DNA of 64,000 bases. Origin: a virus. Position 1 is the stretch's first letter, and each line of letters opens with the position of its first letter. A model generated the notes under the pieces. That model ran no database searches, was not told the origin of the DNA, and saw only the letters and a list, made by a program, of their open reading frames with translations. Where the stretch lies: positions 23,500-87,499 of the IMG/VR virus record IMGVR_UViG_3300008108_000169, one strand, 5' to 3'. Below are positions 30,159 to 48,441 of this stretch, in pieces. The position numbers were made by a program, and so were the translations under genes.

Positions 30159-30479
30159 TTATTTGCCTAGTTTAGTGGCACGTTTAGCCATTTTCTCAAC
30201 TTCACTTTGGCCGGAATCTGTTCCTACTTCTGGTTCTTCTTCTGCCGTCTTTAGTGTAAGTCCTGTGCCGTCAAACTTATCTACCATTTTATGTAAAACC
30301 TGTTGTTCAGGTGGTAGTTGATCTTCTTGATCCCAACGAGCGGCAAATGCACGATATGAAACTGGGATGCCCATCTGTTGAAGAGCATCCCAGGTTAGTG
30401 ATGATGTTGAATTTAAATTATCGCCTGAGCTTTGAGCTGTAAACAATGCCCTAACTAATGGATCGATAGTTTCAGTTAC
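30159..30479 (-). CDS. C-terminal -1 frame extension of the MQIREF virion protein
   Basis: About 105 codons with no ATG or SD at a sensible place. The frame begins as KKKVTETIDPLVRALFTAQS directly where the upstream gene ends in SKKK-stop, over a run of nine A. The heptamer A AAA AAG just before TAA is the E. coli dnaX-type slippery site, and a -1 slip joins the two frames. Ends EKMAKRATKLGK (basic). Expressed either by programmed frameshifting or because one A of the run is missing in the assembly. A separate gene starting at TTG 30446 is less likely. Confidence 0.6.
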   Translation of the reverse strand, partial: VTETIDPLVRALFTAQSSGDNLNSTSSLTWDALQQMGIPVSYRAFAARWDQEDQLPPEQQVLHKMVDKFDGTGLTLKTAEEEPEVGTDSGQSEVEKMAKRATKLGK

Positions 30480-31459
30480 TTTTTTTTTGAAATTGTAGAA
30501 GCAAGCATCATGCCTAGCTTACGGCTATAATCAATGCTTTCGCGCTTTTCGCGGCCAACTTCAGCTGCCGGGGCGGCCATTGGCTCTTCTTCAGCACCTA
30601 ATTCTGGTGGTGCGCCTAAGTCTGCTGTCATTTCGTCGCCTGTTGGTGCGCCCATTGCCATAGGTGCCTCACCGCCTGATACGATAGATAATGCTGATGA
30701 AAGGCCTGTACGTGATGTTTCAAGTGCTGTATAAATTGCCTCAAGTGCTGGCTTGACTGATTCTTGCCAACGTTGTGCAACGTCGCTACCTTGTGTTTCT
30801 CTTATAGAGTCTACTAATTCTAAAAGCTGTTCTGCCTTCATGGCGGCCACGTCTTCTAGCCACCCTGTGATGCGGTCAACCATATCTTTGGTAGCCATAA
30901 TGGTTTCAGCTTTATCTTCTTCGCCTTCCATTAGAACCCAGCCGGCAACGGATTCGTTTAGGTCGTAACGTAGTTGTAGTTCGGCCTTTAATTCTTCCTT
31001 GTCTGACTCGCCTAGTTCCATACGTGATAAAGCAGTATTGATCCAAGCTGTTGGAACTGACTCACTCATTGCACGTTTGCGAATAGTTGCGAAATAAACA
31101 TTTTCGCCTTTCTCTTTACCATATTGTTTTTTCATAGATGCCTTCATTCCTGAATCGTCTGTTTTAGCTTTGATATCTTTTTCTTTCTTTTTCTCAGCTG
31201 GAGTCATTTCTCTTTCTAGGATCTCTTGATTAATAACATCTAGCATTAGTCTTGTTTTTTGATATGTTGGACTTTCTAGCACAGAATCAAAGCTTTCTGA
31301 AAGCTCTAGTTGGCTTATTCGTGTGCGTAGCTTATTACGTGCATCTTCAAGTTGCACATCTGTAAACTGCTCAAAGTTTAGCTTGTAGCCAAACTGTTTA
31401 GCTAGACTCTCGTTGAGCTGACTAGCTGTAGGTTGTTTTGAAAATTCTCTAATTTGCAT
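30476..31459 (-). CDS. Virion protein with capsid-targeting-like N-terminus (327 aa in frame 0)
   Basis: Begins MQIREFSKQPTASQLNES and is charged and helical. It contains the YG.E.G..VYFATIRKRAM motif (about 115-135) common in marine phage proteins, then a Met/Ala/Pro-rich segment (about 265-300). It is preceded by a perfect TATAAATA late core. The frame ends SKKK-stop at the A9 site at 30479-30487 and probably continues in -1 (30159-30479). Function unknown; a head-internal or scaffold-like role is suggested by the N-terminus and context. Confidence 0.72.
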   Translation of the reverse strand: MQIREFSKQPTASQLNESLAKQFGYKLNFEQFTDVQLEDARNKLRTRISQLELSESFDSVLESPTYQKTRLMLDVINQEILEREMTPAEKKKEKDIKAKTDDSGMKASMKKQYGKEKGENVYFATIRKRAMSESVPTAWINTALSRMELGESDKEELKAELQLRYDLNESVAGWVLMEGEEDKAETIMATKDMVDRITGWLEDVAAMKAEQLLELVDSIRETQGSDVAQRWQESVKPALEAIYTALETSRTGLSSALSIVSGGEAPMAMGAPTGDEMTADLGAPPELGAEEEPMAAPAAEVGREKRESIDYSRKLGMMLASTISKKK

Positions 31460-31485
31460 GATTCTGTCCTAGAATTCTTATTACG

Positions 31486-31493
31486 TATTTATA
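31486..31493 (-). promoter_or_regulatory. T4-type late promoter TATAAATA
   Basis: Perfect 8-of-8 core on the minus strand, 26 nt upstream of the MQIREF gene start. Confidence 0.65.
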
Positions 31494-31944
31494 CAAATGA
31501 CCACTTAAACATCTTAGAAATTTCTTGCTTAAAATGCTGTTCTTTGAATGAGCTAGTTTCAAATCTAGTCAGCAATATCTGATATCTTTCGTAGTCTTTG
31601 GTTAATTTCATATTGTATTTAAACACTTGAGAATCAATATGATTTGCCCAGTATTGTGTATCCAAGCGTTTAATTTCTTGTAGTTTTTCTAACTTAATCT
31701 CGTTATAGGCTTTTGCTGCCATAAGAGCACAGGTTTTTAAGAAAAACTCTCCTACATGCTGATCATGTTTAAAATTATACACAGACCAGTTGCCGGCTTT
31801 GGTCTGTTTAACGATAAAGTCTTCGTAGGATATCGAACCGTTGGGTAAAACTGTAATAGGAAGATTGCGATCTAGCTCTTCCTTAAATTGTTCAGCTAGG
31901 GCTCGTACTTTAGAACGATTGATTTTATGTTTTGATTTTTTCAT
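31489..31944 (-). CDS. Hypothetical phage protein (about 151 aa)
   Basis: Start taken at the ATG at 31944 (MKKSKHKINRSKVRALAEQF). Mixed alpha/beta with a basic N-terminus and aromatic-rich C-terminus (MFKWSFV). It overlaps the 69-aa upstream gene by about 20 nt and lies in the late block. Family not recognised. Confidence 0.65.
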   Translation of the reverse strand: MKKSKHKINRSKVRALAEQFKEELDRNLPITVLPNGSISYEDFIVKQTKAGNWSVYNFKHDQHVGEFFLKTCALMAAKAYNEIKLEKLQEIKRLDTQYWANHIDSQVFKYNMKLTKDYERYQILLTRFETSSFKEQHFKQEISKMFKWSFV

Positions 31945-32134
31945 TTGCAACTACAGTAGGATTTTCCATTCCTATCTTAGTTACCAAACTTTTGCGGATC
32001 ATGGCCTCAACTTTGAATTGCTCGTGTTCGCTTAGAGTAGAGAGCTTAACTGGACGAGTTAGCTTTTTTAATATTTCTGCTTCTTCGTTAGTAGTCCAGA
32101 TTTCGAAGTTATCAACTAGTTCGCTTATTTTCAT
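31925..32134 (-). CDS. Small protein with capsid-targeting-like N-terminus (69 aa)
   Basis: Begins MKISELVDNFEIWTTNEEAE; the first eight residues follow the M-[KR]-x-x-[EQ]-[FIL] pattern shared by many genes in this block. It continues as a helical, charged domain (LSTLSEHEQFKVEAMIRKSL). ATGA coupling with the gene upstream. Function unknown. Confidence 0.65.
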   Translation of the reverse strand: MKISELVDNFEIWTTNEEAEILKKLTRPVKLSTLSEHEQFKVEAMIRKSLVTKIGMENPTVVANEKIKT

Positions 32135-32829
32135 AGCCCAGATAGTTTCTTAATTGCTAGTAGTTCTTGATTTTCAAACTTTAGACTTGGATTTGTAGGA
32201 TGTTGTCCAGGAAGACCAATAAAATCTAAACCTCTACCTACCATATTTGATTTTTGTAGGTATTCGGGACTTAGTCCATCCTTGCCAATCAATCTTGCAA
32301 TAGTTGTTGGATCTGTAGTTTTCTCCCACTCAACTGGAGAAAGTACTTTTTTGTCTCTAGGTACTTGTCCTGACTGTACCGCTTTGATTCTATATTCTAA
32401 CTGCTTCTTTTCCCAGGGTTGGGTAGCCTGTTGCATTAATGCAGTCAGCTGAGAAATATAATTTTGTGCTAGTTGATCATTAGGACCTTCTTCCATGTTC
32501 TTTTCAGCATTGACTGTAGTACCAGGTGCAATATTATCAGGAGTATTTAAGGTTAAAGTATTATTCTCGCCGGGTTTTAATTGTGATAGTTCGACAGTTT
32601 TGGCCTGCCCGTCTGGTCCGGTAATAGTTGCTGTGCCTGCGGCTTGGTTAACCTGGGAAATCTTACCCACCATACCACCTGGTTGTGTTTCGTTGACTTT
32701 CTTTTTGTCATCGCCAGGAGCGACAGGACCTTGTGGCTTTATTGGCTCGATGTACTGCTTTGGCTTCTGTGCGTACTTTTTAGCTCTAAAGCCTTTTTTG
32801 TGTTCACCTACGATCTGATTAACCTTCAT
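32131..32829 (-). CDS. Hypothetical protein with capsid-targeting-like N-terminus (about 232 aa)
   Basis: I start at the ATG at 32829 (GGAG upstream), giving MKVNQIVGEHKKGFRAKKYA; the Glu at residue 9 could be a head-protease site. A basic Pro/Lys segment precedes an OB- or KOW-like beta stretch (GGMVGKISQVNQAAGTATIT, GPDGQAKTVELSQLKPG) and a helical C-terminus. Late block; function unknown. Confidence 0.65.
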   Translation of the reverse strand: MKVNQIVGEHKKGFRAKKYAQKPKQYIEPIKPQGPVAPGDDKKKVNETQPGGMVGKISQVNQAAGTATITGPDGQAKTVELSQLKPGENNTLTLNTPDNIAPGTTVNAEKNMEEGPNDQLAQNYISQLTALMQQATQPWEKKQLEYRIKAVQSGQVPRDKKVLSPVEWEKTTDPTTIARLIGKDGLSPEYLQKSNMVGRGLDFIGLPGQHPTNPSLKFENQELLAIKKLSGL

Positions 32830-33520
32830 TTTGTTCTCCAATGCTAAGACTAGCACTTTCTAATTTGTCTATATATTTACGCAATTTATCAATCTTACCT
32901 CTCGCTCTGAGTAACTTAAAAGCTAGATTTTCAACAGAATGTTCGCCGCCTTGTTCTAGGCCTGCTTGGCGGAGTCGTCTTATATTAGCCATAGTTTCTT
33001 TGGCTGTGGTTAGATCATCAGATTTTAATGCTTGATTGATGCGTGAAGCATAGTTTCGAGCTTTGCTTTTTACTTCTTGTGCTGTAGCACGAGGTGCTCC
33101 CGGTTTTGGTTCACTGAGCCAGCTGTTATTTAAAACACTATAGATTCCAGCCGAGTAGTGTCGTTGTTCGTGGTCTTGTACATAAAGTTCTACATCGATA
33201 TCTTTGATTTTAATAGAGTATCGACTGTTGTAGACATTCTTTTTAGCATCGTAGAGTTCTACCTTTTCCGGTGAGTCTACTACTGCTACTAGGTGCAGAT
33301 CTAGATCACTGCTGTCGTTATAACCATAGCTGGCATTTGAGCCACTAATAGTTATGTCTTTAAGATCTAGTTTTTCTACGTTGAGATATTCTGCGAAGTG
33401 TCGAGCTATTTTTAGTAGTTGTAGTCTAACTTCGGGTATGAGTTTATTGTTGTCCCAGAGTTTAGGATTTAACTCGGGATGATAGGTAATAGGAGCAACT
33501 GATAGTTCTTGAAAGTTCAT
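32819..33520 (-). CDS. Predicted nucleotidyltransferase-fold protein
   Basis: 233 aa. ITISGSNASYGYNDSSDLDL then HLVAVVD matches the GS...S-D-x-D core of the pol-beta/MNT nucleotidyltransferase superfamily, and KIKDIDVELYVQD gives the third acidic residue. The C-terminal half is a basic helical region (SKARNYASRINQALKS, LRARGKIDKLRKYIDKL). N-terminus MNFQELSVAP weakly resembles the targeting peptide. Substrate unknown. Confidence 0.75.
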   Translation of the reverse strand: MNFQELSVAPITYHPELNPKLWDNNKLIPEVRLQLLKIARHFAEYLNVEKLDLKDITISGSNASYGYNDSSDLDLHLVAVVDSPEKVELYDAKKNVYNSRYSIKIKDIDVELYVQDHEQRHYSAGIYSVLNNSWLSEPKPGAPRATAQEVKSKARNYASRINQALKSDDLTTAKETMANIRRLRQAGLEQGGEHSVENLAFKLLRARGKIDKLRKYIDKLESASLSIGEQNEG

Positions 33521-33523
33521 TCA

Positions 33524-33808
33524 TTATTTAAAGAATTGTGCTACGCTATCCCAATGACTTGACATCCAACCAAGCACGGCCATGCCGCCTAGTATCATGT
33601 AAGTCCATTTCATCTTAAACCCTTCTAGGTCTTTGATCTTTCCAGCAAGTTGGGCGTGTTGTTCGCAACTGGCATCATACATGGTCTTTAGTTGTGCTTT
33701 GATATCGTCATGGCCAGCTTTGATGTCCACCTGCAGATGGTCAATTTTTTCATCTAAGTTAGCTACTTTCGTTTCGACTATACCAAGTCGTTCTGCTGTT
33801 GTCGCCAT
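33524..33808 (-). CDS. Coiled-coil protein with C-terminal membrane helix (XhlA/holin-like)
   Basis: 94 aa. A long coiled coil (ERLGIVETKVANLDEKIDHL, QVDIKAGHDDIKAQLKTM) is followed by one membrane helix near the C-terminus (WTYMILGGMAVLGWMSS). This topology matches XhlA-type hemolysin/holin helper proteins. SD GGAG precedes the start. Role in lysis is possible but unproven. Confidence 0.65.
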   Translation of the reverse strand: MATTAERLGIVETKVANLDEKIDHLQVDIKAGHDDIKAQLKTMYDASCEQHAQLAGKIKDLEGFKMKWTYMILGGMAVLGWMSSHWDSVAQFFK

Positions 33809-33887
33809 CGTGGCATTCTCCGTTATTAAGTCAGGGCTCTTATGAGCATGTGCCTAATCAAAAATGCCTTGTAGTTGCCTTATGATA

Positions 33888-33894
33888 TATTTAT
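33888..33894 (-). promoter_or_regulatory. Late promoter core ATAAATA
   Basis: Minus-strand TAATAAATATATC about 80 nt upstream of the XhlA-like gene, at the stop of the gene before it. Confidence 0.45.
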
Positions 33895-34172
33895 TAAAGT
33901 TGTTTAAAAATAATGTTGCGGGCATCGCCATCTGTTACAAAAACAGCATAGTTTTGCTCCATAGATTCGTCTAATCCACTAATATAAGGTACACCCTCAA
34001 AGTCATTTATTAAAAATGAAACAGGATTATTCAAATCTCCGAATAGGTAATCTTTTTCTACTTCAAATTCAAAAACCCAAACTTTTATTATTTTACTAGT
34101 TTTAAATCCAACTACGTTACCTGCTACTGTTATTACTTCAGGTTTTTTAGAAAAAGATACATTTGCCCTCAT
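33894..34172 (-). CDS. Hypothetical virion protein whose N-terminal start is unclear (92 aa or more)
   Basis: From the first ATG the product is MRANVSFSKKPEVITVAGNV and onward, ending ARNIIFKQL. The same frame upstream, back to a TAG near 34288, codes for natural-looking sequence (TTVQTLQETDRWKEQNFQTV, LQTLG) but contains no ATG. It overlaps the C-terminus of the 124-aa gene in the +1 frame. Either it starts at an unusual codon or the two are one gene split by an indel. Confidence 0.6.
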   Translation of the reverse strand: MRANVSFSKKPEVITVAGNVVGFKTSKIIKVWVFEFEVEKDYLFGDLNNPVSFLINDFEGVPYISGLDESMEQNYAVFVTDGDARNIIFKQL

Positions 34173-34582: not shown

Positions 34583-34603
34583 TATTTGGACTAGAAATCT
34601 AGC

Positions 34604-35446
34604 TTAAAGGGCCAGTTTTTGGCGAATAGATTTGAACCAATCTACTGTGCCTTCTTTTACGGCTACACCCTTTTTAGCCATATCGTCACGGAACTGTGCT
34701 AGGCGAGGGCTGTCTATGCCCCCAACAGCATCTATAATGCTTTCAGCACTGCCTAGATCGTCTGCTGTAGCTTTAGGACCTAGCACAATGCGAGCAAGCT
34801 CGTCAACATCTTGTGTTACGATTTCTCCAGTAGCACGATTTTTTAGGCTACCGCCAAACCCGTCATACTGGAATGTCTTAGGAGGGTGTCCTGGAATACT
34901 GTTAACTAGACTAGATACTGCTAACTGTTGATCAACACCTTTGTACGGACTGTCTTTGCGACTGTAATCATGCTCATGATGACGTCCGATAGCATGGGCA
35001 TTTTTCATAGTCATTAGATCTATTTGAAAGTATGCAGGTAGGCCTTCTATTTCTTTGCCCACAGGCAAGCCTATGTGTACATTTTTACCAATCTGTGTAG
35101 TTGGAAACTGCTGGCTCATTGCTTTAGCCAGGGCAACACGTACTTCTTTGTCGTCTGCTTCCGGTGCTAGGCCAAGTTTGCCTTTGATTGCATCTGTGTC
35201 AATAAACACGTCAACATCACCGGAATCAATTTTAGTAGTTCCTTTCTTGGCAAAACGATGTTCTGGGTCAAATGATCCGGCGCCACCACTACGCCAAAAA
35301 CCTGGATCACCTAGGTCTGCTAGAATAGGCTGTAGTTGCTTTTTGATCTGTAAAAACTGTTCTTTGCTTAGGCGGACTAATACACCCTTTTCTGGGTTAT
35401 TGTCTAGCGCATCTATTCCTAGCTTTTTAAGAGCATTACCACTCAT
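34604..35446 (-). CDS. Nucleotidyltransferase-like phage protein (280 aa)
   Basis: Core GGAGSFDPEHRFAKKGTTKI, then DSGDVDVFIDTD, has the G-S and D-x-D spacing of nucleotidyltransferase folds, and YFQIDLMTMKN could give the third acidic residue. A conserved C-terminal part (TQDVDELARIVLGPKATADD) follows. ATGA coupling to the gene upstream. Substrate unknown; late context. Confidence 0.6.
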   Translation of the reverse strand: MSGNALKKLGIDALDNNPEKGVLVRLSKEQFLQIKKQLQPILADLGDPGFWRSGGAGSFDPEHRFAKKGTTKIDSGDVDVFIDTDAIKGKLGLAPEADDKEVRVALAKAMSQQFPTTQIGKNVHIGLPVGKEIEGLPAYFQIDLMTMKNAHAIGRHHEHDYSRKDSPYKGVDQQLAVSSLVNSIPGHPPKTFQYDGFGGSLKNRATGEIVTQDVDELARIVLGPKATADDLGSAESIIDAVGGIDSPRLAQFRDDMAKKGVAVKEGTVDWFKSIRQKLAL

Positions 35447-37018: not shown

Positions 37019-37423
37019 TTAAACTATCGACTCTCGATCAAACAGGTTAGGGTGCTTTTTACCCCAATTACGCATAATCACTGCGGCTTCGGCATTGGCT
37101 TCGTTTTCTTGTGGGCTACCGGTAGCACCAGGATCGTCGCCATCAAGTTCTCGATTTAGATCTTGTTTGTAGTGGACAAGCTCGTGTGCCAGTGTACGAC
37201 AGACATCCATGATGTGTCTGTTAACTACAGTAATACGAATATGTTCGTTACCGTAGCCTCCGAAACTAGAATGTTCAACACTACCTTTAGCATCAAACTT
37301 AAATTCAAACTTAGGAAGGCTGTCAAGTTCTAAGTGTTCTGCGGCAAATCGAACAAATTCAAGCAAGGTGCTGTAAGTATCTTTACGACTCATTCCTTCG
37401 GTTAGTAGCTCTTTGATTTTCAT
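37019..37423 (-). CDS. HExxH zinc-metalloprotease-like protein with capsid-targeting-like N-terminus
   Basis: 134 aa. MKIKELLTEG resembles the T4 targeting peptide with a Glu-Gly junction at 9-10. VCRTLAHELVHYKQDL contains HELVH (zinc-binding His pair and catalytic Glu), and EANAEAAVIMRNW may give the third ligand. SprT-like or minigluzincin-like size. If packaged, it would be a protease delivered with DNA. TAATG overlap with the gene upstream. Confidence 0.78.
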   Translation of the reverse strand: MKIKELLTEGMSRKDTYSTLLEFVRFAAEHLELDSLPKFEFKFDAKGSVEHSSFGGYGNEHIRITVVNRHIMDVCRTLAHELVHYKQDLNRELDGDDPGATGSPQENEANAEAAVIMRNWGKKHPNLFDRESIV

Positions 37424-37836
37424 TACTTCTTCCTACCTTGGCAATGAGCACGTTGGCTAAATCCTTTTGGATTGTTACAGTTGATAGAACGCTTGTATTT
37501 GTCGCTCCACTCTTCACCAATATTTTTATCTATACCTCTGCTACCTGTACCACCCTTACGACGTTTGGCAGCTAGTTCTTCAATGCCGTGGCGAATCTGT
37601 TCTAAGTTCTGCTCTAGACCCATAAACAGACCGCCCTTGGCATCACGCACAATACTCTGCCACACTAGTAAATCGTTTGACTCTGCACGTTCTGCTAGAT
37701 CTTTTAATTGAGCACGGGCCTGCATGATGCGCCCTTTTAAGCTCATTGGATTAGCTTTTTCGTGGCCGTAGATTACGGGATCGTTAGGATCACCGGTCAT
37801 ATCTATTGGAGTTTCTAGCAGTTGATGTATCTTCAT
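37423..37836 (-). CDS. Protein with capsid-targeting-like N-terminus and basic Cys-containing tail (137 aa)
   Basis: MKIHQLLETPIDMTGDPNDP at the start; central helical region; C-terminus NCNNPKGFSQRAHCQGRKK, a motif I know from several marine phage proteins. The basic Cys/His tail could bind DNA or metal. Likely a head-internal protein; function unknown. Confidence 0.7.
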   Translation of the reverse strand: MKIHQLLETPIDMTGDPNDPVIYGHEKANPMSLKGRIMQARAQLKDLAERAESNDLLVWQSIVRDAKGGLFMGLEQNLEQIRHGIEELAAKRRKGGTGSRGIDKNIGEEWSDKYKRSINCNNPKGFSQRAHCQGRKK

Positions 37837-39186: not shown

Positions 39187-40203
39187 TTACAAGCCCCATT
39201 TATTGCTGAGATAGTTTTCCACGTTAGAAATTTCAGTAGAATTTAACGCATGGGTAAAAATTAAGAACTCGCCTATATCACCTGTATAGTAGTTGGCACC
39301 ATTATTGTTACCAATATATAAAGTAGTATTACTTGCACTGAGAGTATCACCTACTGTTCCGGCAAATGTAAGTGTAATATCAGTTTTATCGTATCGGTAC
39401 TTTAAACTTGCGGCATTGGTAGTTTGTGTACCGTCATAGGCAAAAGTATGTATATGGAATGCTGTGCCATCATTGACTACTGTACTAGTTCCTACGCCGC
39501 CAGCAGCCTTGGCTACAAACTTTCCTGCCGTAGTATCATAAATCAATCCGGTAGCACCACTATTGGTTACAAATATATTTGGGCTTCCTGTTGTTGCTGT
39601 CATCTTCATCACTACAAAAACTGTCAGGGCAGGAGCACTGGCTAACGAAGAATACGGATTGATACTTAAACCATCGTTACCGTCAAAACGAACAACACTT
39701 AGAGTATTCTGTTCACTGGTCTGGTAACTGGCTCTAGTAGTAGCACCGCCAATTGGGTTAGCGTTGTGGGCGAAACCAGACTTGTCTGTCCATTGCGTGA
39801 ACGTCTGGCCGTCACTAGGGTTGCTTGGAACGAATTGTACTCCATCACTGCCATCATACCAAGATTCAAGCTGAACAAAAGTTTCTGTAGGAACTGCTTC
39901 TTCAATTGTAGCAGGTGCCGACAATGATGCAATTCCTACCCAGGGCCTAGCTGGTAGTAAAGGGTCTGCATCTGCTGTGGTTCCGTAGGCTAAACTCAGT
40001 GCGTCTAAATCATAAACATTATTAGTTCTATAATAAGGTTTAGATGAATCTACTGATCCAGAAATAGTTCCATCATCAGCAACTATTTTACCTTGACGTT
40101 TTGCCTGTGCAATATCTAATTTAGCCACCTGTCTTGCGGCTTTGTTAGCAACAGGATCAGATCCGTCGCCTGAAATTAAATGAGCAATACCGTTAGCTGA
40201 CAT
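39187..40203 (-). CDS. LamG/concanavalin-like lectin-domain virion protein
   Basis: 338 aa. Residues about 105-335 form a laminin-G/ConA-type sandwich: WYDGSDGVQFVPSNPSDGQT, LSVVRFDGNDGLSI, LYIGNNNGANYYTGDIGEFL, ending NYLSNKWGL, a classic ending for this fold. It probably binds host-surface glycans. TAATG overlap with the 111-aa gene upstream; late block. Confidence 0.78.
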   Translation of the reverse strand: MSANGIAHLISGDGSDPVANKAARQVAKLDIAQAKRQGKIVADDGTISGSVDSSKPYYRTNNVYDLDALSLAYGTTADADPLLPARPWVGIASLSAPATIEEAVPTETFVQLESWYDGSDGVQFVPSNPSDGQTFTQWTDKSGFAHNANPIGGATTRASYQTSEQNTLSVVRFDGNDGLSINPYSSLASAPALTVFVVMKMTATTGSPNIFVTNSGATGLIYDTTAGKFVAKAAGGVGTSTVVNDGTAFHIHTFAYDGTQTTNAASLKYRYDKTDITLTFAGTVGDTLSASNTTLYIGNNNGANYYTGDIGEFLIFTHALNSTEISNVENYLSNKWGL

Positions 40204-40538
40204 TATTCATTCTCCGGATTATGTTGGTGCCCAGGATAAGCACTTGGATGCTGTACACGAATATCGCTAGGATGTTTAGGTTCTTGCCAACCACCGCCAG
40301 CATCTTTAGTTACTGCGTCTATATCTGCATATTCTTCCTTAGGTGCATTTGAAAAAACGCTAGCAGAGCCGTCTGTATCGTCTTTGCTGACTAGATCTAC
40401 TATCTGTTTAAATTTGCGAATAGTATCCGGATTCTCTTCTTGCGGCTCTGCTACAGCAACTACCTGTATTTCTGGTTCTGCTGTTTTCTGGCCGTCAATT
40501 AAGTCTAAAATACTGCGTATGATTTCTTGGGCTCTCAT
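40203..40538 (-). CDS. Small head-associated protein with capsid-targeting-like N-terminus (111 aa)
   Basis: MRAQEIIRSILDLIDGQK, then an acidic linker, and a conserved C-terminus KHPSDIRVQHPSAYPGHQHN. Such ends occur in marine T4-like phage head-region proteins. Function unknown. Divergent from the ALAS gene. Confidence 0.7.
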   Translation of the reverse strand: MRAQEIIRSILDLIDGQKTAEPEIQVVAVAEPQEENPDTIRKFKQIVDLVSKDDTDGSASVFSNAPKEEYADIDAVTKDAGGGWQEPKHPSDIRVQHPSAYPGHQHNPENE

Positions 40539-40580: not shown

Positions 40581-41783
40581 ATGATAAACAAAGAACCTTT
40601 CAAAAAACTACTACAAGATCTAAAAGATTCAGGAAAATATCGTGTTTTTAACGATATTGTACGAGAAGCTGGTAAATTTCCTACAGCTATTTGGTATGGA
40701 CCCTATGCTATTAAAAATATAGTTAACTGGTGCTCGAATGATTATCTAGGCATGGGACAGCACAAAGTTGTTATTGATGCTATGCACACAGCATTAGATC
40801 ATACTGGGACAGGATCAGGCGGAACTCGTAACATCGGAGGAACTAGTCATTATCATGTAGCTTTGGAACATGAACTAGCAACATTACATAAGAAAGAACG
40901 TGCCTTGCTGTTCAGTAGTGCTTACGTTGCAAATGAATGGACACTGATCGCATTGAGCAAGATCGTACCCAATATTGAGTTTATCAGCGATAGTAAGAAT
41001 CATAATAGTTTGATAGTCGGAATACAACATAGTAAAGCTAAGAAAGTAGTCTTTAAACATAACGACTTAGAAGATCTAGAACAAAAACTTAAAATTAGTT
41101 TTGCACAAGGCAATACTCCTTGCATAGTATTTGAAAGTGTTTATAGCATGGATGGAGATGTTAGTCCTATCAAAGAAATATGTCGCCTAGCTAAAAAATA
41201 CAAAGCAATCACTTATATCGACGAAGTACACGCAGTAGGACTCTACGGAAATCGCGGAGGAGGCAAAGTAGAAGAATTAGGCCTAGAAGATCAAATTGAT
41301 ATTATCAACGGAACATTGGGTAAAGCATTTGGTGTTCAGGGCGGATACATCGCAGCCGATAGTGATATCGTTGATGCTATCCGTTCAGTGGCTGCTGGCT
41401 TCATCTTTACAACATCGATGAGTCCTGTAAGTTGTGCCGGTGCTCTGGCCGCAATCAAGTGGTTGAAGGAGCATAACGAAATACGCGAAAAGCACCAAGA
41501 ACGTGCTCGTAAATTAAAGTATCGATTGAACAAAGCAGGTATTACAGTTATGGAGTGTTCAACTACACACATTGTTCCTGTACTAGTAGGTGAGGCTAAG
41601 AAATGTAAAAAGATCAGTGATTACCTATTAGCTGAACACGGTATCTATGTACAGCCAATTAATTACCCAACTGTCGATGTAGGCACAGAACGACTACGCT
41701 TTGCTCCTACACCATACCATGATGACGGTATGATCGAAGATCTAGTTGATGCTCTTAAACAAGCATTTGAGCAATTTGAGTAA
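40581..41783 (+). CDS. hemA: 5-aminolevulinate synthase (ALAS)
   Basis: 400 aa, the usual ALAS length. [35 protein letters not shown], Asp214 in [12 protein letters not shown] and the PLP lysine Lys248 in [17 protein letters not shown] are all in place. It condenses glycine and succinyl-CoA, the first step of C4 heme synthesis in alphaproteobacteria. 2-amino-3-ketobutyrate CoA ligase is a close relative, but the GTRNIGG stretch and length favour ALAS. It is a lone plus-strand gene, so possibly a separate acquisition. No SD is visible. It pairs functionally with ho1/pcyX at 10.4-11.6 kb. Confidence 0.92.
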
Positions 41784-42383: not shown

Positions 42384-42788
42384 TTATGTAATAGGGCCGC
42401 CTTCGATCCAGGCATCACATGTCCGTTTAGCGGCACATTTAAATTTTAAAAACTTACAGTAGCCTAACTGCCCTGCATCTACTGTATCGTGTGGATTTGA
42501 ACCGGGCTCACTGCCTATACCTGTTGCTATACAATCCTGCATTTTTTCTGATATATCAAATGCTCCGCAGTTACCACAACGATTATTTTTAACTGATTCT
42601 ATATCTTTAGTGTTCCACTTATCTGCTAGTTTTTGCCAATATTCATCATTTGGCTCGTTAGGATTTAGTGGGCCGTAATGATACTCGTTTATAGCCTTTT
42701 GTCTATTCTTTAGATTAAGATCGATATCTTGGGTAGCTGGTGGACACCCCTTCTCTAGTGCCTCAACGACATTGATATAATTTCTCAT
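42384..42788 (-). CDS. Cysteine-rich protein with capsid-targeting-like N-terminus (134 aa)
   Basis: MRNYINVVEALEKGCPPATQ at the start. The C-terminal half has ordered cysteines: NRCGNCGAFDIS, MQDC, GYCKFLKFKC, RTCDAW. The spacing suggests a Zn or Fe-S site (HiPIP-like patterns are known in phage proteins). Coupled by ATGA to the HAD gene. Possibly packaged. Confidence 0.72.
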   Translation of the reverse strand: MRNYINVVEALEKGCPPATQDIDLNLKNRQKAINEYHYGPLNPNEPNDEYWQKLADKWNTKDIESVKNNRCGNCGAFDISEKMQDCIATGIGSEPGSNPHDTVDAGQLGYCKFLKFKCAAKRTCDAWIEGGPIT

Positions 42789-43912
42789 TTCTTTTTTGCC
42801 CTTCCGGCTTTCATGTTAGCTAACCAATGTGCTAGTTGTCCTTTACGTCCACCCTGCTTGGCAGTCTTACGTAGACTACTAATGCTAGCTTTAGTATTGA
42901 TACCATGGCGTTTAGCATCTCCTTTGTCTTGTGGATTGCGTCCATCTGCAAAGTTTTCATCTATGTCGTGTGTTGTTAGTCCTAGATCTTTTAGATACTT
43001 TAAGTATTCGTGTTCTAGTGGTTCACTGCCAAAAGCCATTACAGTCTGTGGAGGTCCTTTACCAAAATCATGTTTTCCTAGACCATCGAGATCGCTAATG
43101 TGCTGTCCTAACTTATACCAATCATATACATCGCTAACGTCGATCTTTACAGTACCTTTAGGCCAAGGTATTAAATCACCCTCTTCTATACTTTCGCCAC
43201 CTCCGTCTCCACCACCGCCATCTCCGCTGTAGCCTGAGTCATACCCGTACCAACCATATGGGCCTGGGCCGTATGCTCCGAAACGATACTTAGTCTTTTT
43301 CTTACGCCGTTTAGCTTCTTCGATATTCTGTGTTACACCACCAGGGCCAACATAGATAGCACGGAAATCTACTTGAGGATATTCTTTTTGTAGTTCCTTA
43401 AATACACGCAGATTGCTCATGCTATCATCATACAAGCGAACATGTCCATATTGTTTAGTGTCGAGGTATTTACGAACCCATACCGCTTTCTTGTAAGCTG
43501 GAGATTCATCTCCAGGTAAGTTACCTGCACGATGCACGTGAACACGGCTCATGTTTATGCCTAAATCTTTAAATGTCTGCAGAAACTCTTCTTTGTTGTC
43601 AAAGTCTGCACGGGCTGTCAGCATGATAACTTTGGCATTACCTGCATGATTAAGAATTGTTTTAAGTTTTCTAATCATCGGAACGATCGGCTTGCTTTCT
43701 TGGCGGAACTTTTCTGCATCTCTAAATTCGCCAAAGTCAAACTTTTCACCCGGTTGTAGTTGGTAGTTATTAAACTCTTGGTTAGTTAAATCACGTATGA
43801 CCTGCCCTTGTGCATTTAAAACTTTAATCTTTGCTGTCGTGTGAAGTAATGTATCATCTATATCAAAGATGATTAGATCTCGATTACCGGGAGTAAATTC
43901 ATTCGCTCTCAT
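42785..43912 (-). CDS. HAD-family phosphatase with targeting-like N-terminus and basic C-terminal domain
   Basis: About 375 aa from the ATG at 43912 (AGGTGG upstream). MRANEFTPGN, then LIIFDIDDTLLHTT (HAD motif I), KVIMLTARADF (II), KKAVWVRKYL (Lys) and VRLYDDSMSNL (IV). Residues about 205-240 form a Gly/Tyr/Asp linker, followed by PWPKGTVKIDVSDVYDWYKL and the tail ASISSLRKTAKQGGRKGQLA, HWLANMKAGRAKKK. That tail recurs in marine phage proteins and looks DNA-binding. Substrate unknown. Confidence 0.8.
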   Translation of the reverse strand: MRANEFTPGNRDLIIFDIDDTLLHTTAKIKVLNAQGQVIRDLTNQEFNNYQLQPGEKFDFGEFRDAEKFRQESKPIVPMIRKLKTILNHAGNAKVIMLTARADFDNKEEFLQTFKDLGINMSRVHVHRAGNLPGDESPAYKKAVWVRKYLDTKQYGHVRLYDDSMSNLRVFKELQKEYPQVDFRAIYVGPGGVTQNIEEAKRRKKKTKYRFGAYGPGPYGWYGYDSGYSGDGGGGDGGGESIEEGDLIPWPKGTVKIDVSDVYDWYKLGQHISDLDGLGKHDFGKGPPQTVMAFGSEPLEHEYLKYLKDLGLTTHDIDENFADGRNPQDKGDAKRHGINTKASISSLRKTAKQGGRKGQLAHWLANMKAGRAKKK

Positions 43913-44477: not shown

Positions 44478-44502
44478 AGAATACTCCGTAATATTTACAG
44501 AG

Positions 44503-44509: not shown

Positions 44510-44943
44510 TAGATATAATTGTTGAACCAACCTACTTTACGTCCTTCTGCGATACGACGATCGTGTTCTTCTACACTACTAGGATAACGCCAAGCCCATA
44601 CTGCAACACAGGCCATAAAGACTGCTGTACTGATTATACCAATAGGCTTTACTCCGCCTGTGTACATAAGCACAAGACTTAAACTCATCATGGCCAGCAT
44701 GAAATATTTCATTTTCTGGGGGAATACACGCTTTTCATTCCAGTTGGTTAGGAACGGCCCAAATAGTTTATGATTGTACAGCCAGGCATGCATCTTGGGT
44801 GAGCCTTTGGCAAAACAATAGGCGGCAAAAACCACAAAGGGACTGTAGGGTATGCCGGGTGTTACCACGCCGACATACGCCATACCTAGGCTACAAAAGC
44901 CTAGTATCTTCCAAAACCACTTTTTTAAATGAACTGTAACCAT
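44509..44943 (-). CDS. YbaN/DUF454-type inner membrane protein
   Basis: 144 aa. Two N-terminal and two C-terminal membrane helices; GVVTPGIPYSPFVVFAAYCF, AKGSPKMHAWLYNHKLFGPF is the DUF454 signature. Unknown function in bacteria. The start overlaps the HNH gene end by 19 nt. Confidence 0.82.
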   Translation of the reverse strand: MVTVHLKKWFWKILGFCSLGMAYVGVVTPGIPYSPFVVFAAYCFAKGSPKMHAWLYNHKLFGPFLTNWNEKRVFPQKMKYFMLAMMSLSLVLMYTGGVKPIGIISTAVFMACVAVWAWRYPSSVEEHDRRIAEGRKVGWFNNYI

Positions 44944-45437
44944 TCGTCAAACCTCACGTTGAAGCCTTGCTTCTTACGCTTATTTACAAGTTCAAAGTAG
45001 TCTGGCTTGTAAGGTTTGATTTTAGGCTTGTGGGTGTGGGTCTTGTCTGCCTTATCAGCATTACATGGGCCACATGCAGTCACACAGTTTTCCCAGACGG
45101 TTTTACCACCCTTTGAAATAGGGTGTACATGGTCTAGGGTAGATTCTTTACGTTCTACTCCTGTACCGCAGTATTGGCAAGTTCCTTCGTCGCGTAGGTA
45201 CACATTGCCGCGACTGAAGCGGACAGCATTTTTTGGCTTCATGTAGTCTCTAAGCATGATAACGCTAGGAACAGGTGTTTCCCAACGTGCAGATCTCACG
45301 ATCCAATTGTCATGCCAAGACAGTACATCGGCCTTATCAAGGACCATGTATTTGATGGCTTCTTGCCAATCAATAGTGCTCAACGGTAGGTAGCTGACTG
45401 GTAATCCGTCAGCATTCAGAACTAGGGTGTCTGACAT
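44925..45437 (-). CDS. HNH endonuclease
   Basis: 170 aa. CQYCGTGVERKESTLDHVHP, ISKGGKTVWENCVTACGPCN holds two CxxC zinc pairs around the DHV...N HNH core. The N-terminal VLNADGLPVSYLPLSTIDW is typical of phage/bacterial HNH proteins of the McrA/RecE-like type. A free-standing homing nuclease or a packaging/restriction role is possible. Sigma70-like promoter at 45485-45513. Confidence 0.88.
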   Translation of the reverse strand: MSDTLVLNADGLPVSYLPLSTIDWQEAIKYMVLDKADVLSWHDNWIVRSARWETPVPSVIMLRDYMKPKNAVRFSRGNVYLRDEGTCQYCGTGVERKESTLDHVHPISKGGKTVWENCVTACGPCNADKADKTHTHKPKIKPYKPDYFELVNKRKKQGFNVRFDEWLQFI

Positions 45438-45484
45438 TTTACTTCCTTCTTAGTTGTGTTACAGACCCAACCGAACGAGCTTAA

Positions 45485-45513
45485 ATTATAAGCTCATATT
45501 GTACTTATGTCAA
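45485..45513 (-). promoter_or_regulatory. Sigma70-like promoter of the HNH gene
   Basis: Minus strand: TTGACA (45508-45513), 17-bp spacer, TATAAT (45485-45490); perfect consensus hexamers. Confidence 0.9.
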
Positions 45514-45518
45514 CTCTT

Positions 45519-46070
45519 TTATGCTAGTATTTTTTGGGCGAATTCTAATCCGGAACGGTCAAGGGCGTTGCACCATTGATCCTTATTGTCCGATCCGAAA
45601 ACCAATTCTTCGTCTGCACTAGCCAAGCACCAACTAGTTTCTTTATTCCAGGGCGGATCACCTTTGATTTCGCCTGCCAGTTGCCCATGCGCCCAACCAC
45701 ACATACCGAGAAACATACGCCAACGTTCGGGCTCATCTCCGTTAGCAATTCTAGGTAATATATCATCAGCAGAGCTTATGCTGAAGTGATCGTTAACACG
45801 CATGGTATTTTTACATTCCCAATCGCTGGTGTGTAATAGGCTTAGACTTTTTACGTTAACCGGGCCACCTAGATAAATGAATCCCGGACGATCTAGTGGA
45901 AATCCTAATTGGTCTCCAAACTCTTTTACGCTCATCTGGCTACGTTTGTTTAGTACTAAACCGACACTACCATGATTATGGTTTTCAGTAATCATAACTA
46001 CTGTCTTGTACCAGAAGCTGCCTTTGACCGCAGGCGGCGCGATGATAAGATTTCCAACTAATGTGTTCAT
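45519..46070 (-). CDS. AlgH/YqgE (DUF179) family protein
   Basis: About 183 aa from the ATG at 46070 (MNTLVGNLIIAPPAVKGSFW). FWYKTVVMITENHNHGSVGL, VLNKRSQMSV and FIYLGGPVN, MFLGMCGWAHGQLAGEIK follow the AlgH core. Bacterial members have unclear roles (transcription or stress). The longer upstream frame overlaps the hydrolase gene and is not used here. Confidence 0.88.
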   Translation of the reverse strand: MNTLVGNLIIAPPAVKGSFWYKTVVMITENHNHGSVGLVLNKRSQMSVKEFGDQLGFPLDRPGFIYLGGPVNVKSLSLLHTSDWECKNTMRVNDHFSISSADDILPRIANGDEPERWRMFLGMCGWAHGQLAGEIKGDPPWNKETSWCLASADEELVFGSDNKDQWCNALDRSGLEFAQKILA

Positions 46071-46083
46071 GCAATATTTACAT

Positions 46084-47493
46084 TTATGCGCGAGCTTGGA
46101 TCGCTCTTCTGACATCGCCTGCTGTGAGTATTCCATCCTTGGTAACATCTAACCCGTCGTTCCAGTCGTAGACTGCACTTCCTCTTTTAGCAATGACGTA
46201 ACTGTTAGGTTTTCCTACACCTGCAGGCCAGAACACTGAAAGATAAAGATCGCCTAACTTCATTCCTGGTTGTACACCTCGCATGACAAAATACTTGTAG
46301 ACATAATCTAGCTGTTCAACTGCTGACATTTTCTTTAGTTCATCAACTGTTGTCCCAAGAGATCGTGCTGTGTCTGGCATAAACTGAATTAATCCAGTAG
46401 CCTTAGACTTTTTGTTTTGTATTGTATGATCAAGGCCAGATTCTAACCTCATGATAGCAATTAGATCTGATTTAGCTACTCCTAACTTATCGGCAATCTT
46501 TTGTAGTTTGTTATTAAAGTCTGGATCCTGTATTGTTGTAGTGTCAATCTTACGTTTCTCAAACGATCCTCTAGCTGGTTTAACTTCTGCATCTGTACTC
46601 TTAGTTAGGCCTTTGAATAGCTCAGGTTTAGATTTGATTATTGCATTTAACTTCGCGACAGTTTCTGGTCCTGGATCTCCGTCAACACTAAGTCCATTGT
46701 CTCGTTGGAACAGCATTACTGCCGCAGATGTTTCTCTTCCTCTAATACCGTCGACGCCGTGTGTTGGTAACTTATAGCCTAGAGCCAATAATGCTTTTTG
46801 TACGTCTGCTACTGCTGGCTCTCGTCGAGTCTTAGGAACATCAATTATAAACGATCCAGGTGTGGTGGGCTGTACAGGCTTACCGCTTTGATCCGGCTTT
46901 GCTGGTGTTGTGCTAGCGGACCTACCTGCTAATGATATAGCTTCTTGGGCCGCGGATTTGTAAGCCCCTGGAGTGCCATGTATTCCATCTGAAGAAAGAC
47001 CTTTGCCATCTAGGTCAACAACAGGAACACCTACAGCAGATTTAATTGCCTGTCTAACTTCTTCTTGGTAATCACCTGAATAATACTTGGCCAATCCTGG
47101 AGCTCTCGCCTGGCCGTTTGGAAATAAAATAAACACTACAGTATGTCCTGCAGCCTTGGCAGCATCAACTACTCGTCTTACGTTGCTGGCAATCGTAGCT
47201 GGGGGTACTAAGGGTCTTTTACCTTTAGAATCCATATGTGCTCTTGCACTGTTAGCAGTATCGTTGGCACCTTGGCTAATTAAAACTATTTGATTTTTTG
47301 GAATAGTTTCAATACCTACTGGGCCACCGTTCTTTGTATGGCGCCCATTAAAATTATTTTGGTGTGTCGATGGAACTCCACCGTTGGCTCTATTAATAAC
47401 ACCTTTCTGATAGGCCAATCCTTCAGCATGACTATCGCCCACTGAATAGACTTTTCTTTCTTCTTCAAATAGTTTAAATTCTGCGTATCTCAT
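46084..47493 (-). CDS. Multidomain virion hydrolase: SGNH hydrolase, peptidoglycan-binding and lytic transglycosylase
   Basis: 469 aa. MRYAEFKLFEEE is a capsid-targeting-like start. About 14-190 is an SGNH hydrolase (VYSVGDSHAEGL, LISQGANDTANS, SSDGIHGTPGAY). About 215-285 is a PG_binding_1 repeat (ADVQKALLALGYKLPTHGVD, GIRGRETSAAVMLFQRDNGL). About 325-440 is a soluble lytic transglycosylase (IAIMRLESGLDHTI, KATGLIQFMPDTARSLGTT). The end has an EF-hand-like loop (DVTKDGILTAGDV). It could deacetylate and cleave peptidoglycan during DNA entry. Confidence 0.85.
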   Translation of the reverse strand: MRYAEFKLFEEERKVYSVGDSHAEGLAYQKGVINRANGGVPSTHQNNFNGRHTKNGGPVGIETIPKNQIVLISQGANDTANSARAHMDSKGKRPLVPPATIASNVRRVVDAAKAAGHTVVFILFPNGQARAPGLAKYYSGDYQEEVRQAIKSAVGVPVVDLDGKGLSSDGIHGTPGAYKSAAQEAISLAGRSASTTPAKPDQSGKPVQPTTPGSFIIDVPKTRREPAVADVQKALLALGYKLPTHGVDGIRGRETSAAVMLFQRDNGLSVDGDPGPETVAKLNAIIKSKPELFKGLTKSTDAEVKPARGSFEKRKIDTTTIQDPDFNNKLQKIADKLGVAKSDLIAIMRLESGLDHTIQNKKSKATGLIQFMPDTARSLGTTVDELKKMSAVEQLDYVYKYFVMRGVQPGMKLGDLYLSVFWPAGVGKPNSYVIAKRGSAVYDWNDGLDVTKDGILTAGDVRRAIQARA

Positions 47494-47494
47494 A

Positions 47495-48097
47495 TTATTC
47501 TGCTATTGGGTTAACTTGTTGACCGCTTGCATATTTTTCCCAATGCAAGTGAGGGCCTGAACTAAAACCAGTGCTGCCAACTGCACCTACTGTTTGTCCT
47601 TTTTTCACTTCATCACCTTGTCTTACTGATATCTTTGATAGATGCATAAATCTATGTTTCACGCCGCTGGCTGTAATTAGTTCGACTAGATTGCCTGCTG
47701 AGCCTGCCATACCAGCAAATTGTATCTTGCCATCATCAGGTGCGATAACTGGAGTTCCTGTAGGTGCTCCGATATCAACACCCGGGTGTTTAACTTTATT
47801 TCCTTTAGGGCCAGTTACAGTTCTACCATAGTGTCCTGTGATCGTGCCCTTGGTTGGCATGATTTCACCTGAGGAAGTTGTTGGAGATCTAGGTTGTGTG
47901 TTTGTTCTGGGAGCAGGTGCTGAGCCTGGCGACTGTCCGCTTAGATATTTGTCTACAGCGGCCTTAGTGTAAGGTCCCATTATTCCGTCATCTTTAGTAG
48001 GACCTAGATCATAACCTTTGGATATCAAATATCGTTGCATTTGTTTCACGATTGGACTAAAAACACCTTCGAGTAATTTAAATTCTGAGTAACGCAT
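47495..48097 (-). CDS. M23 peptidase with peptidoglycan-binding domain and targeting-like N-terminus
   Basis: About 200 aa from the ATG at 48097 (GGAG upstream). MRYSEFKLLEG is nearly identical in pattern to the start of the neighbouring transglycosylase. Then a PG_binding_1 repeat (MQRYLISKGYDLGPTKDDGI), a Pro/Ser linker, and an M23 domain: HPGVDIGAPTGTPVIAPDDG, HRFMHLSKISVRQGDEVKKG, SSGPHLHWE (His-x-His). It cuts peptide cross-links. The pair forms a two-enzyme wall-opening module. Confidence 0.87.
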   Translation of the reverse strand: MRYSEFKLLEGVFSPIVKQMQRYLISKGYDLGPTKDDGIMGPYTKAAVDKYLSGQSPGSAPAPRTNTQPRSPTTSSGEIMPTKGTITGHYGRTVTGPKGNKVKHPGVDIGAPTGTPVIAPDDGKIQFAGMAGSAGNLVELITASGVKHRFMHLSKISVRQGDEVKKGQTVGAVGSTGFSSGPHLHWEKYASGQQVNPIAE

Positions 48098-48099
48098 CG

Positions 48100-48441
48100 T
48101 TAACTCCAATCGGGCAAAGGCCCGCCGTACTTGTGGCCTTTGATCTTATGTCCGCCTACCTTAACACGGCTCTTGGGACTTTTACCAAGTTTATGACTCT
48201 TTTCGCCATCACGAGCACGTAGACCTTGACTCTTACAGCTGGACAGTTGGCTAGCACCTAATTCGTCGTCGGGCTTAGAACTTAGGCATAGTTTACGACT
48301 AGCCTTTCCTGCTTCGTCTACATCAACTGATTTGTATTGAGGCACTGGTTCGTGCCCGCGGCTAGGACGGCTACCAGATCTTGCTGGGCGTTTAGGGTTT
48401 ATACCTATAGGGTCTTCGACTATAAATTCTTTTGCTCGCAT
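48100..48441 (-). CDS. Basic small protein with capsid-targeting-like N-terminus (113 aa)
   Basis: MRAKEFIVEDPIGINPKRPA is the clearest targeting-type start here (Glu9 junction). The rest is rich in Ser, Lys, Arg and Gly (RSGSRPSRGHEPVPQ, SHKLGKSPKSRVKVGGHKIK), with three Cys. Likely a DNA-binding internal head protein. The ATAAATA core at 48449-48455 is 7 nt upstream, so the message could be leaderless. Confidence 0.72.
   Translation of the reverse strand: MRAKEFIVEDPIGINPKRPARSGSRPSRGHEPVPQYKSVDVDEAGKASRKLCLSSKPDDELGASQLSSCKSQGLRARDGEKSHKLGKSPKSRVKVGGHKIKGHKYGGPLPDWS

What the first reader, a model, noticed from the sequence alone, without database searches (positions are those of the whole stretch)
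30476..48441. A shared capsid-targeting-like N-terminus marks a probable packaged enzyme cargo
At least ten proteins start with a variant of M-[KR]-x-x-[EQ]-[FIL]-x-x-E (for example MRAKEFIVE, MRYAEFKLFE, MRYSEFKLLE, MKIKELLTE, MKIHQLLE, MKVNQIVGE, and MKTFEIIGE at 10.4 kb). T4 internal proteins begin MKTYQEFIAE, which directs them into the prohead and is cut after Glu. The bodies here include an HExxH protease, a HAD phosphatase, SGNH/transglycosylase, M23 peptidase, a Cys-rich protein and Lys/Arg-rich tails. Inference: a multi-enzyme set packed in the head and injected with DNA, much larger than known T4 internal proteins.
Basis: partly seen in the sequence, partly recalled or inferred. Interest (0 to 1): 0.85.

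Follow-up and report, generated by a model that had tools for sequence, protein, structure and literature searches.

The report
Head-targeting tags on phage cargo proteins
A large uncultured relative of phage T4 puts a T4-like address tag of about ten residues on a swappable set of proteins, several of them predicted enzymes, which suggests that it packs them into its head and may inject them, though no virion of it has been examined.

Summary
The shared N-terminus is real, though looser than written. Seven window proteins end the tag with [ILV]-x-E; five more keep only the core. Relatives keep the pattern while letters, and sometimes bodies, change. A profile trained only on this lineage's tags ranks T4 IPII, IPIII and IPI 1st, 2nd and 5th of 255 T4 ORFs, but only if one extra spacer residue is allowed. 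Relatives encode a gp21-type S77 protease, and 10 of 10 capsid proteins read, PA5oct's included, carry a matching L-x-E site. ORFs carrying any of four basic modules are tagged in 45 of 54 and 28 of 31 cases, against 15-16% of neighbours. I read it as a T4-type capsid-targeting system extended to many cargo proteins, wall hydrolases among them. Packaging, cleavage and injection are untested; PA5oct virion data lean the same way but are weak (P 0.02-0.23 by threshold; shuffled-profile control not passed).

The parts
8859..10376 (-). Tagged protein A, 505 aa, MKTFEIIGE|ASIF; body tentatively restriction-endonuclease-like (HinP1I/MspI fold), weak
30476..31459 (-). Tagged protein B, 327 aa, MQIREF core without Glu site; PHROG 14154 'virion structural protein' (E 2.6e-8)
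31486..31493 (-). TATAAATA, 27-34 bases upstream of the B start; same element upstream of B in G001 and G020 (that it is the T4 late-promoter consensus is recalled)
31925..32134 (-). Tagged protein C, 69 aa, MKISELVDN, no Glu site
32131..32829 (-). Tagged protein D, 232 aa, MKVNQIVGE|H
32819..33520 (-). Tagged protein E, 233 aa, MNFQELSV, no Glu site; weak nucleotidyltransferase match; tag not recognisable in the G020 ortholog
37019..37423 (-). Tagged protein F, 134 aa, MKIKELLTE|G; HExxH metalloprotease-like
37423..37836 (-). Tagged protein G, 137 aa, MKIHQLLE|T
37426..37515 (-). C-terminal module 1 of G (W-S-x-K-Y-K-x-S-I-N-C...)
40203..40538 (-). Tagged protein H, 111 aa, MRAQEIIRS, no Glu site
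42785..43912 (-). Tagged protein I, 375 aa, MRANEFTPGN, no Glu site; HAD-like domain (below Pfam cut-off); middle part replaced by a dCMP-deaminase domain in G001
42788..42958 (-). C-terminal module 4 of I (ENFADGRNPQDKGD...AGRAKKK), its E preceded by I-D
46084..47493 (-). Tagged protein J, 469 aa, MRYAEFKLFE|E; GDSL/SGNH + PG_binding_1 + SLT
47495..48097 (-). Tagged protein K, 200 aa, MRYSEFKLLE|G; PG_binding_1 + peptidase M23
48100..48441 (-). Tagged protein L, 113 aa, MRAKEFIVE|D
48103..48309 (-). C-terminal module 2 of L (GKASRKLC...KYGGPLPDWS), Cys/Lys/Arg-rich

Best explanation
The N-terminal peptide of about ten residues (M-[KR]-x-x-[EQD]-[FIL]-...-[ILVF]-x-E) is a T4-type capsid-targeting propeptide. 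It docks otherwise unrelated proteins into the prohead core. Where a Phi-x-E site is present, the phage's gp21-type S77 protease cuts after the Glu during head maturation. The freed proteins stay in the head with the DNA, helped by Lys/Arg/Cys-rich C-terminal modules that I take to bind DNA, and are ejected with it. Peptidoglycan hydrolases would open the wall, while the nuclease-like, HAD/deaminase and metalloprotease-like proteins would act inside the new host. Shown here: a non-random shared tag, its conservation as a pattern with body exchange, its likeness to T4 internal-protein CTSs (with a one-residue spacer), protease and matching capsid site in relatives, association with the modules. 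Inferred: targeting, cleavage, DNA binding, ejection and every enzymatic role.
For: Enrichment over column-permuted N-termini in G000, its near-copy G002, G001, G020 and G021. Out-of-sample profile: T4 IPII, IPIII and IPI rank 1, 2 and 5 of 255 ORFs, and 1-3 of 106 in a 62-kb subset, which column-permuted profiles reached in 0.2% of 500. F family: 19 of 20 loci start with the tag, some of them near-copies; Synechococcus phage B23 starts MNYKQFLRES, while the S-SRM01 homolog has no tag. A family: 7 of 7 loci read (of 10 found) have different tags before a constant ASI. Body exchange: I has a deaminase in G001; the J-K-L slot holds different wall hydrolases in G001 and G020. S77 protease: in the same 7 of 18 long tag/module records that hold gp23 over the cut-off, and in G020, E 6.5e-27. 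Capsid proteins: 10 of 10 read (PA5oct one of them) have [YF]L-x-E-[SN] before the conserved core, x being L, K, S, Q, V or M. Carriers of any of four modules tagged: 45 of 54 and 28 of 31, against 60 of 380 and 61 of 400 other ORFs. PA5oct: MS-positive ORFs score higher than the rest, Mann-Whitney P 0.0003 (but see against). Model of A: residues 1-17 below pLDDT 50.
Against: No virion data exist for this phage. In PA5oct the tail that matters is thin: regex 3 of 90 MS-positive vs 4 of 358, P 0.15; profile score >=3 5 of 90 vs 5 of 400, P 0.022, other thresholds P 0.08-0.23; among the top 28 a column-permuted profile did as well in 21.5%, and the top-scoring ORF is MS-negative. Five of 12 window tags lack the Glu; E has no recognisable tag in G020. 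The profile has false hits: the IMP dehydrogenase at 14269-15294 scores 12.5. Of 8 DUF6321 proteins scored from phages of cyanobacteria none reaches 5. No S77 or gp23 match in the window's own record. S77 goes with gp23 in T4-like phages anyway (recalled), so co-occurrence is necessary, not discriminating.
Confidence: 0.68

Rival explanations
1. The tag is a real assembly peptide but addresses the tail or baseplate, so the wall hydrolases are tail-borne entry enzymes and nothing is in the head.
For: The SLT part of J matches PHROG 196 'baseplate hub' (E 1.2e-34) and M23 of K matches tape-measure and endolysin families. PA5oct MS-positive proteins with tag-like starts are not all next to head genes.
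Against: In T4 it is internal head proteins that score best. A PA5oct protein with a strong tag (82921-83142, MS-positive) lies between portal and prohead genes. HAD, deaminase and basic-module bodies have no obvious tail role (inference). Tags with a Glu site fit the consensus seen in the capsid proteins.
Confidence: 0.15
2. The shared N-terminus is only a recombination landmark: gene starts exchanged among paralogous, fast-evolving accessory genes, giving lysis or host-takeover proteins made and used in the infected cell without packaging.
For: Bodies are exchanged behind similar starts. Five of 12 tags lack the Glu site. Wall hydrolases could be ordinary endolysins.
Against: In the F family key tag codons show 102 synonymous and 87 non-synonymous pairwise differences, the residues staying in class. 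The A family keeps the pattern with very different letters. The F homolog of S-SRM01 lacks the tag and lies among replication genes. Tags precede ORFs that are little more than one basic module.
Confidence: 0.14
3. Chance or composition: MK/MR starts followed by acidic and hydrophobic residues are common, and the reader picked them out.
For: Exact matches are few (4 of 139 ORFs), and some unrelated genes score well, such as the IMP dehydrogenase.
Against: Column-permuted nulls did not reach the counts in G000 in 2000 tries; the enrichment recurs in G001, G020 and G021 and in module-selected contigs.
Confidence: 0.03

Closest known systems
T4 internal proteins IPI, IPII, IPIII and their capsid-targeting sequence
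   Same: Short N-terminal peptide followed by divergent bodies; L/I-x-E site cut by gp21 (passages of PMC9026906); ranked 1, 2 and 5 of 255 by a profile trained on this lineage.
   Different: Spacing one residue shorter here; a dozen tagged proteins instead of three plus Alt, including predicted wall hydrolases and a HAD-like protein; C-terminal basic modules; packaging not shown.
T4 Alt
   Same: Large enzyme packaged in the head and injected (passages of PMC5512222 and PMC9026906).
   Different: Alt's N-terminus is not recognised by the lineage profile (rank 69 of 255); no ADP-ribosyltransferase match among the 11 of 12 tagged window proteins scanned with Pfam.
Phage P1 DarB capsid-targeting N-terminus
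   Same: The N-terminal 30 residues suffice to send a reporter into the head (passages of PMC9024508).
   Different: That paper's BLAST found no consensus among Dar N-termini; here one pattern is shared by many bodies.
SPN3US and phiKZ ejection proteins
   Same: Head cargo processed after Glu by a gp21-related protease (passages of PMC5694885 and PMC9026906).
   Different: Several SPN3US propeptides exceed 100 residues and only one is of T4 CTS length; here about ten residues.
Polyvalent proteins (Iyer et al. 2017)
   Same: Multidomain proteins with disparate activities, inferred to be packaged and injected (passages of PMC5512222).
   Different: Here many smaller proteins share one tag instead of one long polypeptide; such a tag is not mentioned in the passages seen.

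Membership tests
T4-type capsid-targeting sequence | N-terminal peptide of 10-20 residues shared by otherwise unrelated proteins | tested here: met
T4-type capsid-targeting sequence | Sequence like the T4 IP propeptides | tested here: inconclusive
T4-type capsid-targeting sequence | L/I-x-E cleavage site at the end of the peptide | tested here: inconclusive
   7 of 12 window proteins, one of them with V at P3; 5 of 12 lack it
T4-type capsid-targeting sequence | gp21-type S77 prohead protease in the same phage | tested here: inconclusive
   No match in the window's own record, a fragment without gp23 match too; present in G020 and in the same 7 of 18 relatives that hold gp23 over the cut-off
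T4-type capsid-targeting sequence | Capsid protein of the lineage carries the same protease consensus | tested here: met
   10 of 10 capsid proteins read (G020, 8 other records, PA5oct) show L-x-E before the conserved core; sequence only, cleavage not shown
T4-type capsid-targeting sequence | Peptide sends a protein into the head and is cut off | not testable with these tools
   needs fusions and virion N-terminal mapping; PA5oct MS list only weakly supportive
Polyvalent proteins | 2 to 15 disparate domains in one polypeptide | tested here: inconclusive
   J has GDSL + PG_binding + SLT; I of G001 has HAD-like + deaminase; most tagged window proteins have one or no assigned domain
PD-(D/E)XK nuclease (protein A) | Fold of HinP1I/MspI with D...K active site | tested here: inconclusive
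   Best VIA Z 5.3, 5.1, 4.9 are HinP1I, HinP1I, MspI, all under 8; Foldseek best E 0.023; invariant K-T-D and S-L-K

The most novel reading that the evidence does not exclude
A modular cargo format in large T4-like phages: tag | enzyme | basic DNA-binding module, with a prohead-protease site at the module junction too. One maturation step would free enzyme and module inside the head, and each lineage would load its own exchangeable set of wall hydrolases, proteases, nuclease-like and nucleotide enzymes for injection. Internal modules are preceded by [ILVFM]-x-E within two residues in 14 of 14 (module 2), 7 of 8 (module 1), 4 of 5 (module 3) and 8 of 18 (module 4) distinct cases, against 3-7% at other positions. 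The ten module-4 misses keep the E but not the hydrophobic residue, and these boundary residues are inherited together, so the cases are not independent.
Probability: 0.33. Interest if true: 0.86.

Novelty: new variant of a known kind. Interest (0 to 1): 0.72.

Why it matters
If true, a sequence-readable address tag lets one list the proteins that uncultured T4-like phages carry in their heads, many of them now without an assigned function. It would turn the question of what large phages inject into a testable list, give function hints for DUF6321 and three unnamed modules, and supply many natural tag-cargo pairs for protein delivery by T4-type capsids.

Tried and rejected
PA5oct as proof: the GenBank 'ESI-MS/MS' notes promised a direct test, but the regex gave P 0.15 and the profile 0.022-0.23 by threshold; the Mann-Whitney P of 0.0003 over all scores is not backed by the permuted-profile control. 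Kept as weak support only.

Finding the protease in the window's own record or in G001: no S77 or gp23 match, nor a portal match in G001; both are fragments.

DUF6321 (module 3) in isolates as a tag test: 12 of 88 matching records fetched, 8 proteins scored, 4 not scored because their CDS was cut at the 5' end of the stretch (S-SRM01, DSL-LC02, ACG-2014f, S-SCSM2R). None of 8 reaches score 5; P-TIM40 looks tagged by eye (MKNFAQYIEE, score -0.1); the two podoviruses S-RIP1 and S-CBP4 have a bare module; the five larger proteins (P-TIM68, S-CREM2, B23, S-8S55, S-H34) score -2.2 to -10.6.

F homologs in isolates: of 7 matching records the Synechococcus phages B23 and S-SRM01 were read; the four Flavobacterium records (26% identity) were not.

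Relatives of B: 26 of the 28 weaker loci (L013-L040) were read. They are mostly large proteins sharing only a short segment with B and without a tag-like start; a loose pattern hit 20 of 250 ORFs there, most of them one neighbouring family (MNVKTEIVKE) that I do not count as tagged.

Protein A as a nuclease: the model is middling (pLDDT 71) and the matches weak; the G001 ORF in A's place is not evidently homologous (23%).

TATAAATA: upstream of B in three records and of a tag-like gene in G020; too few to prove late expression of the cluster.

Module 4 in cellular genomes: 106 stretches matched a pattern, none confirmed (the tool finds close relatives only). Papers: no hit for DUF6321 or DUF7230; searches listed nothing that I recognised as describing such a tagged enzyme set, judged from the listings and from passages of the papers opened; no bioRxiv preprints are held, and no paper was read whole.
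Full report
Setting. The window is bases 23500-87499 of an 87,499-base virus record, G000. A near-identical record (G002, 91 kb) extends it to the right, and a syntenic 191-kb record (G001) aligns along much of it in pieces of 67-92% identity. Two more distant relatives are G020 (356 kb) and G021 (148 kb). By the G001 terminase the best-matching listed isolates are Pseudomonas phage PA5oct and its kin at 54% amino-acid identity.

Observation. Twelve minus-strand ORFs begin with a recognisable tag (A 8859-10376; B-L between 30476 and 48441). Column-permutation nulls under the same rule (2000 each) average 0.13, 0.64 and 1.85 and did not reach the observed counts. Seven of the twelve have an [ILV]-x-E site ending at residue 8-10; five do not. 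G001, G020 and G021 repeat the enrichment (G001: 2 exact, P 0.009; 6 flexible, null maximum 5; G020: 3 exact, null maximum 2, 8 flexible, null maximum 6; G021: 3 exact, null maximum 1, 4 flexible, null maximum 3). The flexible patterns were written after seeing the data. The tag profile also hits some unrelated genes: the IMP dehydrogenase at 14269-15294 scores 12.5.

The tag evolves as a unit apart from the bodies. In the F family 19 of 20 loci start M-[KR]-x-x-E-[LIFV]-L-x-E-[GS], some being near-copies of one another or of the window; the twentieth (L080) sits inside a longer ORF. Key tag codons (2, 5, 6, 7, 9) differ among 14 sequences by 102 synonymous and 87 non-synonymous pairwise differences, the residues staying in class (K/R, L/I/F/V); positions 3, 4 and 8 vary more (56 and 154). 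Of isolates with an F homolog, Synechococcus phage B23 starts MNYKQFLRES, while S-SRM01 has no such start. In the A family seven loci read out of ten found show seven different tags (one the window's own), each followed by ASI. In I the HAD-like part and the C-terminal module are kept, but the middle is Gly-rich in the window and a dCMP-deaminase domain in G001. The J-K-L slot holds GDSL+PG_binding+SLT and PG_binding+M23 in the window, Phage_lysozyme2 and M23 in G001, LysM+Phage_lysozyme2 and a GH19 chitinase with module 2 in G020.

Likeness to T4. A ten-column profile was trained on 44 tags of this lineage only. Over 255 ORFs of T4 it ranks IPII 1st, IPIII 2nd and IPI 5th; Alt is 69th. In the 62-kb subset used first the three were 1-3 of 106, a result that column-permuted profiles reached in 0.2% of 500. 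The permuted control counted a stricter event (all three on top: 0 of 500) that the real profile did not meet either. Passages of the review PMC9026906 say that the first ten residues of IPIII suffice for head entry, that residues 4 and 7 matter most for targeting and 8 and 10 for processing, that gp21 cuts after L/I-x-E, and that Asp at position 10 blocks cutting but still allows targeting; the last point shows that a tag can work uncut, as the five window tags without Glu would have to.

Protease. PF03420 (S77) is in 2 of 14 records of the first set, 1 of 14 of the second (G020, E 6.5e-27) and 7 of 18 of the third. In the third set the same 7 have gp23 over the cut-off and the other 11 do not (one weak sub-threshold match, G049). 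In a first-round set of 15 records gp23 is in the 2 that also have S77. In the second set gp23 is in G020 and G021; the G021 gene lies at 1.1 kb of its contig behind the scaffold gene, so the protease would lie off the end. The G020 head genes run portal, acidic prohead protein, S77, scaffold, capsid (roles other than S77 and gp23 are by position and recalled likeness). In 10 capsid proteins read (PA5oct one of them) the segment before the conserved core is [YF]L-x-E-[SN] with x = L, K, S, Q, V or M: only L and E are fixed, as expected of the gp21 consensus. S77 goes with gp23 in T4-like phages generally (recalled), so this is a necessary condition only.

Modules. Four short Lys/Arg/Cys-rich segments recur, mostly at C-termini; one is Pfam DUF6321, for the other three no Pfam match was found in the proteins scanned. 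Scans with module 4 found 556 relatives and with module 2 158, 80 of each kept by the tool. ORFs in these loci that carry any of the four modules and have a known start score 5 or more in 72 of 85 and 57 of 64 cases, against 107 of 600 and 107 of 633 other ORFs; 11 and 2 module ORFs truncated at the 5' end were dropped. Dereplicated and without training N-termini: 45 of 54 vs 60 of 380, and 28 of 31 vs 61 of 400. Some of the tagged 'other' ORFs carry modules that my patterns missed; both classes were scored by the best of their candidate starts. The smallest forms (about 63-95 aa) are a tag fused directly to a module. A scan of cellular genomes confirmed no relative of module 4. In phages of cyanobacteria the rule fails: 0 of 8 DUF6321 proteins scored reach 5, and the two podoviruses have the bare module. 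Where a module sits inside a longer protein, [ILVFM]-x-E precedes it within two residues in 14/14, 7/8, 4/5 and 8/18 cases (modules 2, 1, 3, 4) against 3-7% elsewhere; those residues are inherited together, so this is suggestive only.

Virion evidence. The PA5oct GenBank record marks proteins 'ESI-MS/MS'; 93 such CDS were entered and 90 matched to called ORFs. Regex: 3 of 90 vs 4 of 358, P 0.15. Profile: Mann-Whitney P 0.0003 over all scores; score 3 or more 5 of 90 vs 5 of 400, P 0.022; 5 or more P 0.079; 7 or more P 0.23; 8 or more P 0.16. Among the top 28 by score 9 are MS-positive against 6.9 for permuted profiles, reached by 21.5%. Two strong hits are MS-positive: 82921-83142 (MKINDIITEG), between portal and prohead genes, and 157529-157843 (MKIKDILVES). 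The highest-scoring PA5oct ORF is MS-negative. So the virion data lean the right way but do not prove it.

Protein A. The AlphaFold model from seven sequences has mean pLDDT 71.4, the tag region being below 50. The three best VIA matches are the restriction endonucleases HinP1I (Z 5.3, rmsd 5.7, 196 aligned; second entry Z 5.1) and MspI (Z 4.9, rmsd 5.3, 201 aligned), in a range that the tool warns may mean only a common arrangement; Foldseek has none below 0.001. With invariant K-T-D and S-L-K a PD-(D/E)XK nuclease is a lead, no more.

Verdict. The best reading is a T4-type capsid-targeting propeptide put to wider use: a lineage-wide, exchangeable cargo set in which wall hydrolases recur. Targeting, cutting, DNA binding and injection are inferred.

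Noticed in passing
window 384-8246 (-): CHASE2 + guanylate cyclase (384-2426), a 712-aa protein without Pfam match, FecR (4892-6001) and CsgG + SH3 (7032-8246): a bacterial-type signalling and curli-secretion-like operon in a phage; part of it aligns with G001.
   Followed up: partly
left of the window, L001 and L002 (G000:C1:1-23800): 36 tRNA genes and a tmRNA (flagged with * by ARAGORN) within about 15 kb.
   Followed up: no
window 40581-41783 (+): Class I/II aminotransferase-fold gene that reads as 5-aminolevulinate synthase (name recalled; Pfam), on the + strand inside the mostly minus-strand tagged cluster and kept in G001 and G020.
   Followed up: partly
window 20328-21012 (-): Overlapping Fe-S_biosyn and NifU_N genes, an Fe-S assembly pair in a phage.
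   Followed up: no
window 14269-15294 (-): IMP dehydrogenase / GMP reductase gene.
   Followed up: no
window 45519-46148 (-): AlgH-like (DUF179) gene inside the tagged cluster; similar ORFs in G001 and G020 by eye.
   Followed up: no
G020 89082-90281 (L090:9082-10281): 399-aa protein starting MKVLDVILEG, behind the head genes with TATAAATA upstream: a candidate tagged head protein.
   Followed up: partly
window 34604-35446 (-): 280-aa protein with a nucleotidyltransferase-like G-D-V-D-V-F motif by eye but no Pfam match at E 0.01; perhaps a second such enzyme near E.
   Followed up: no
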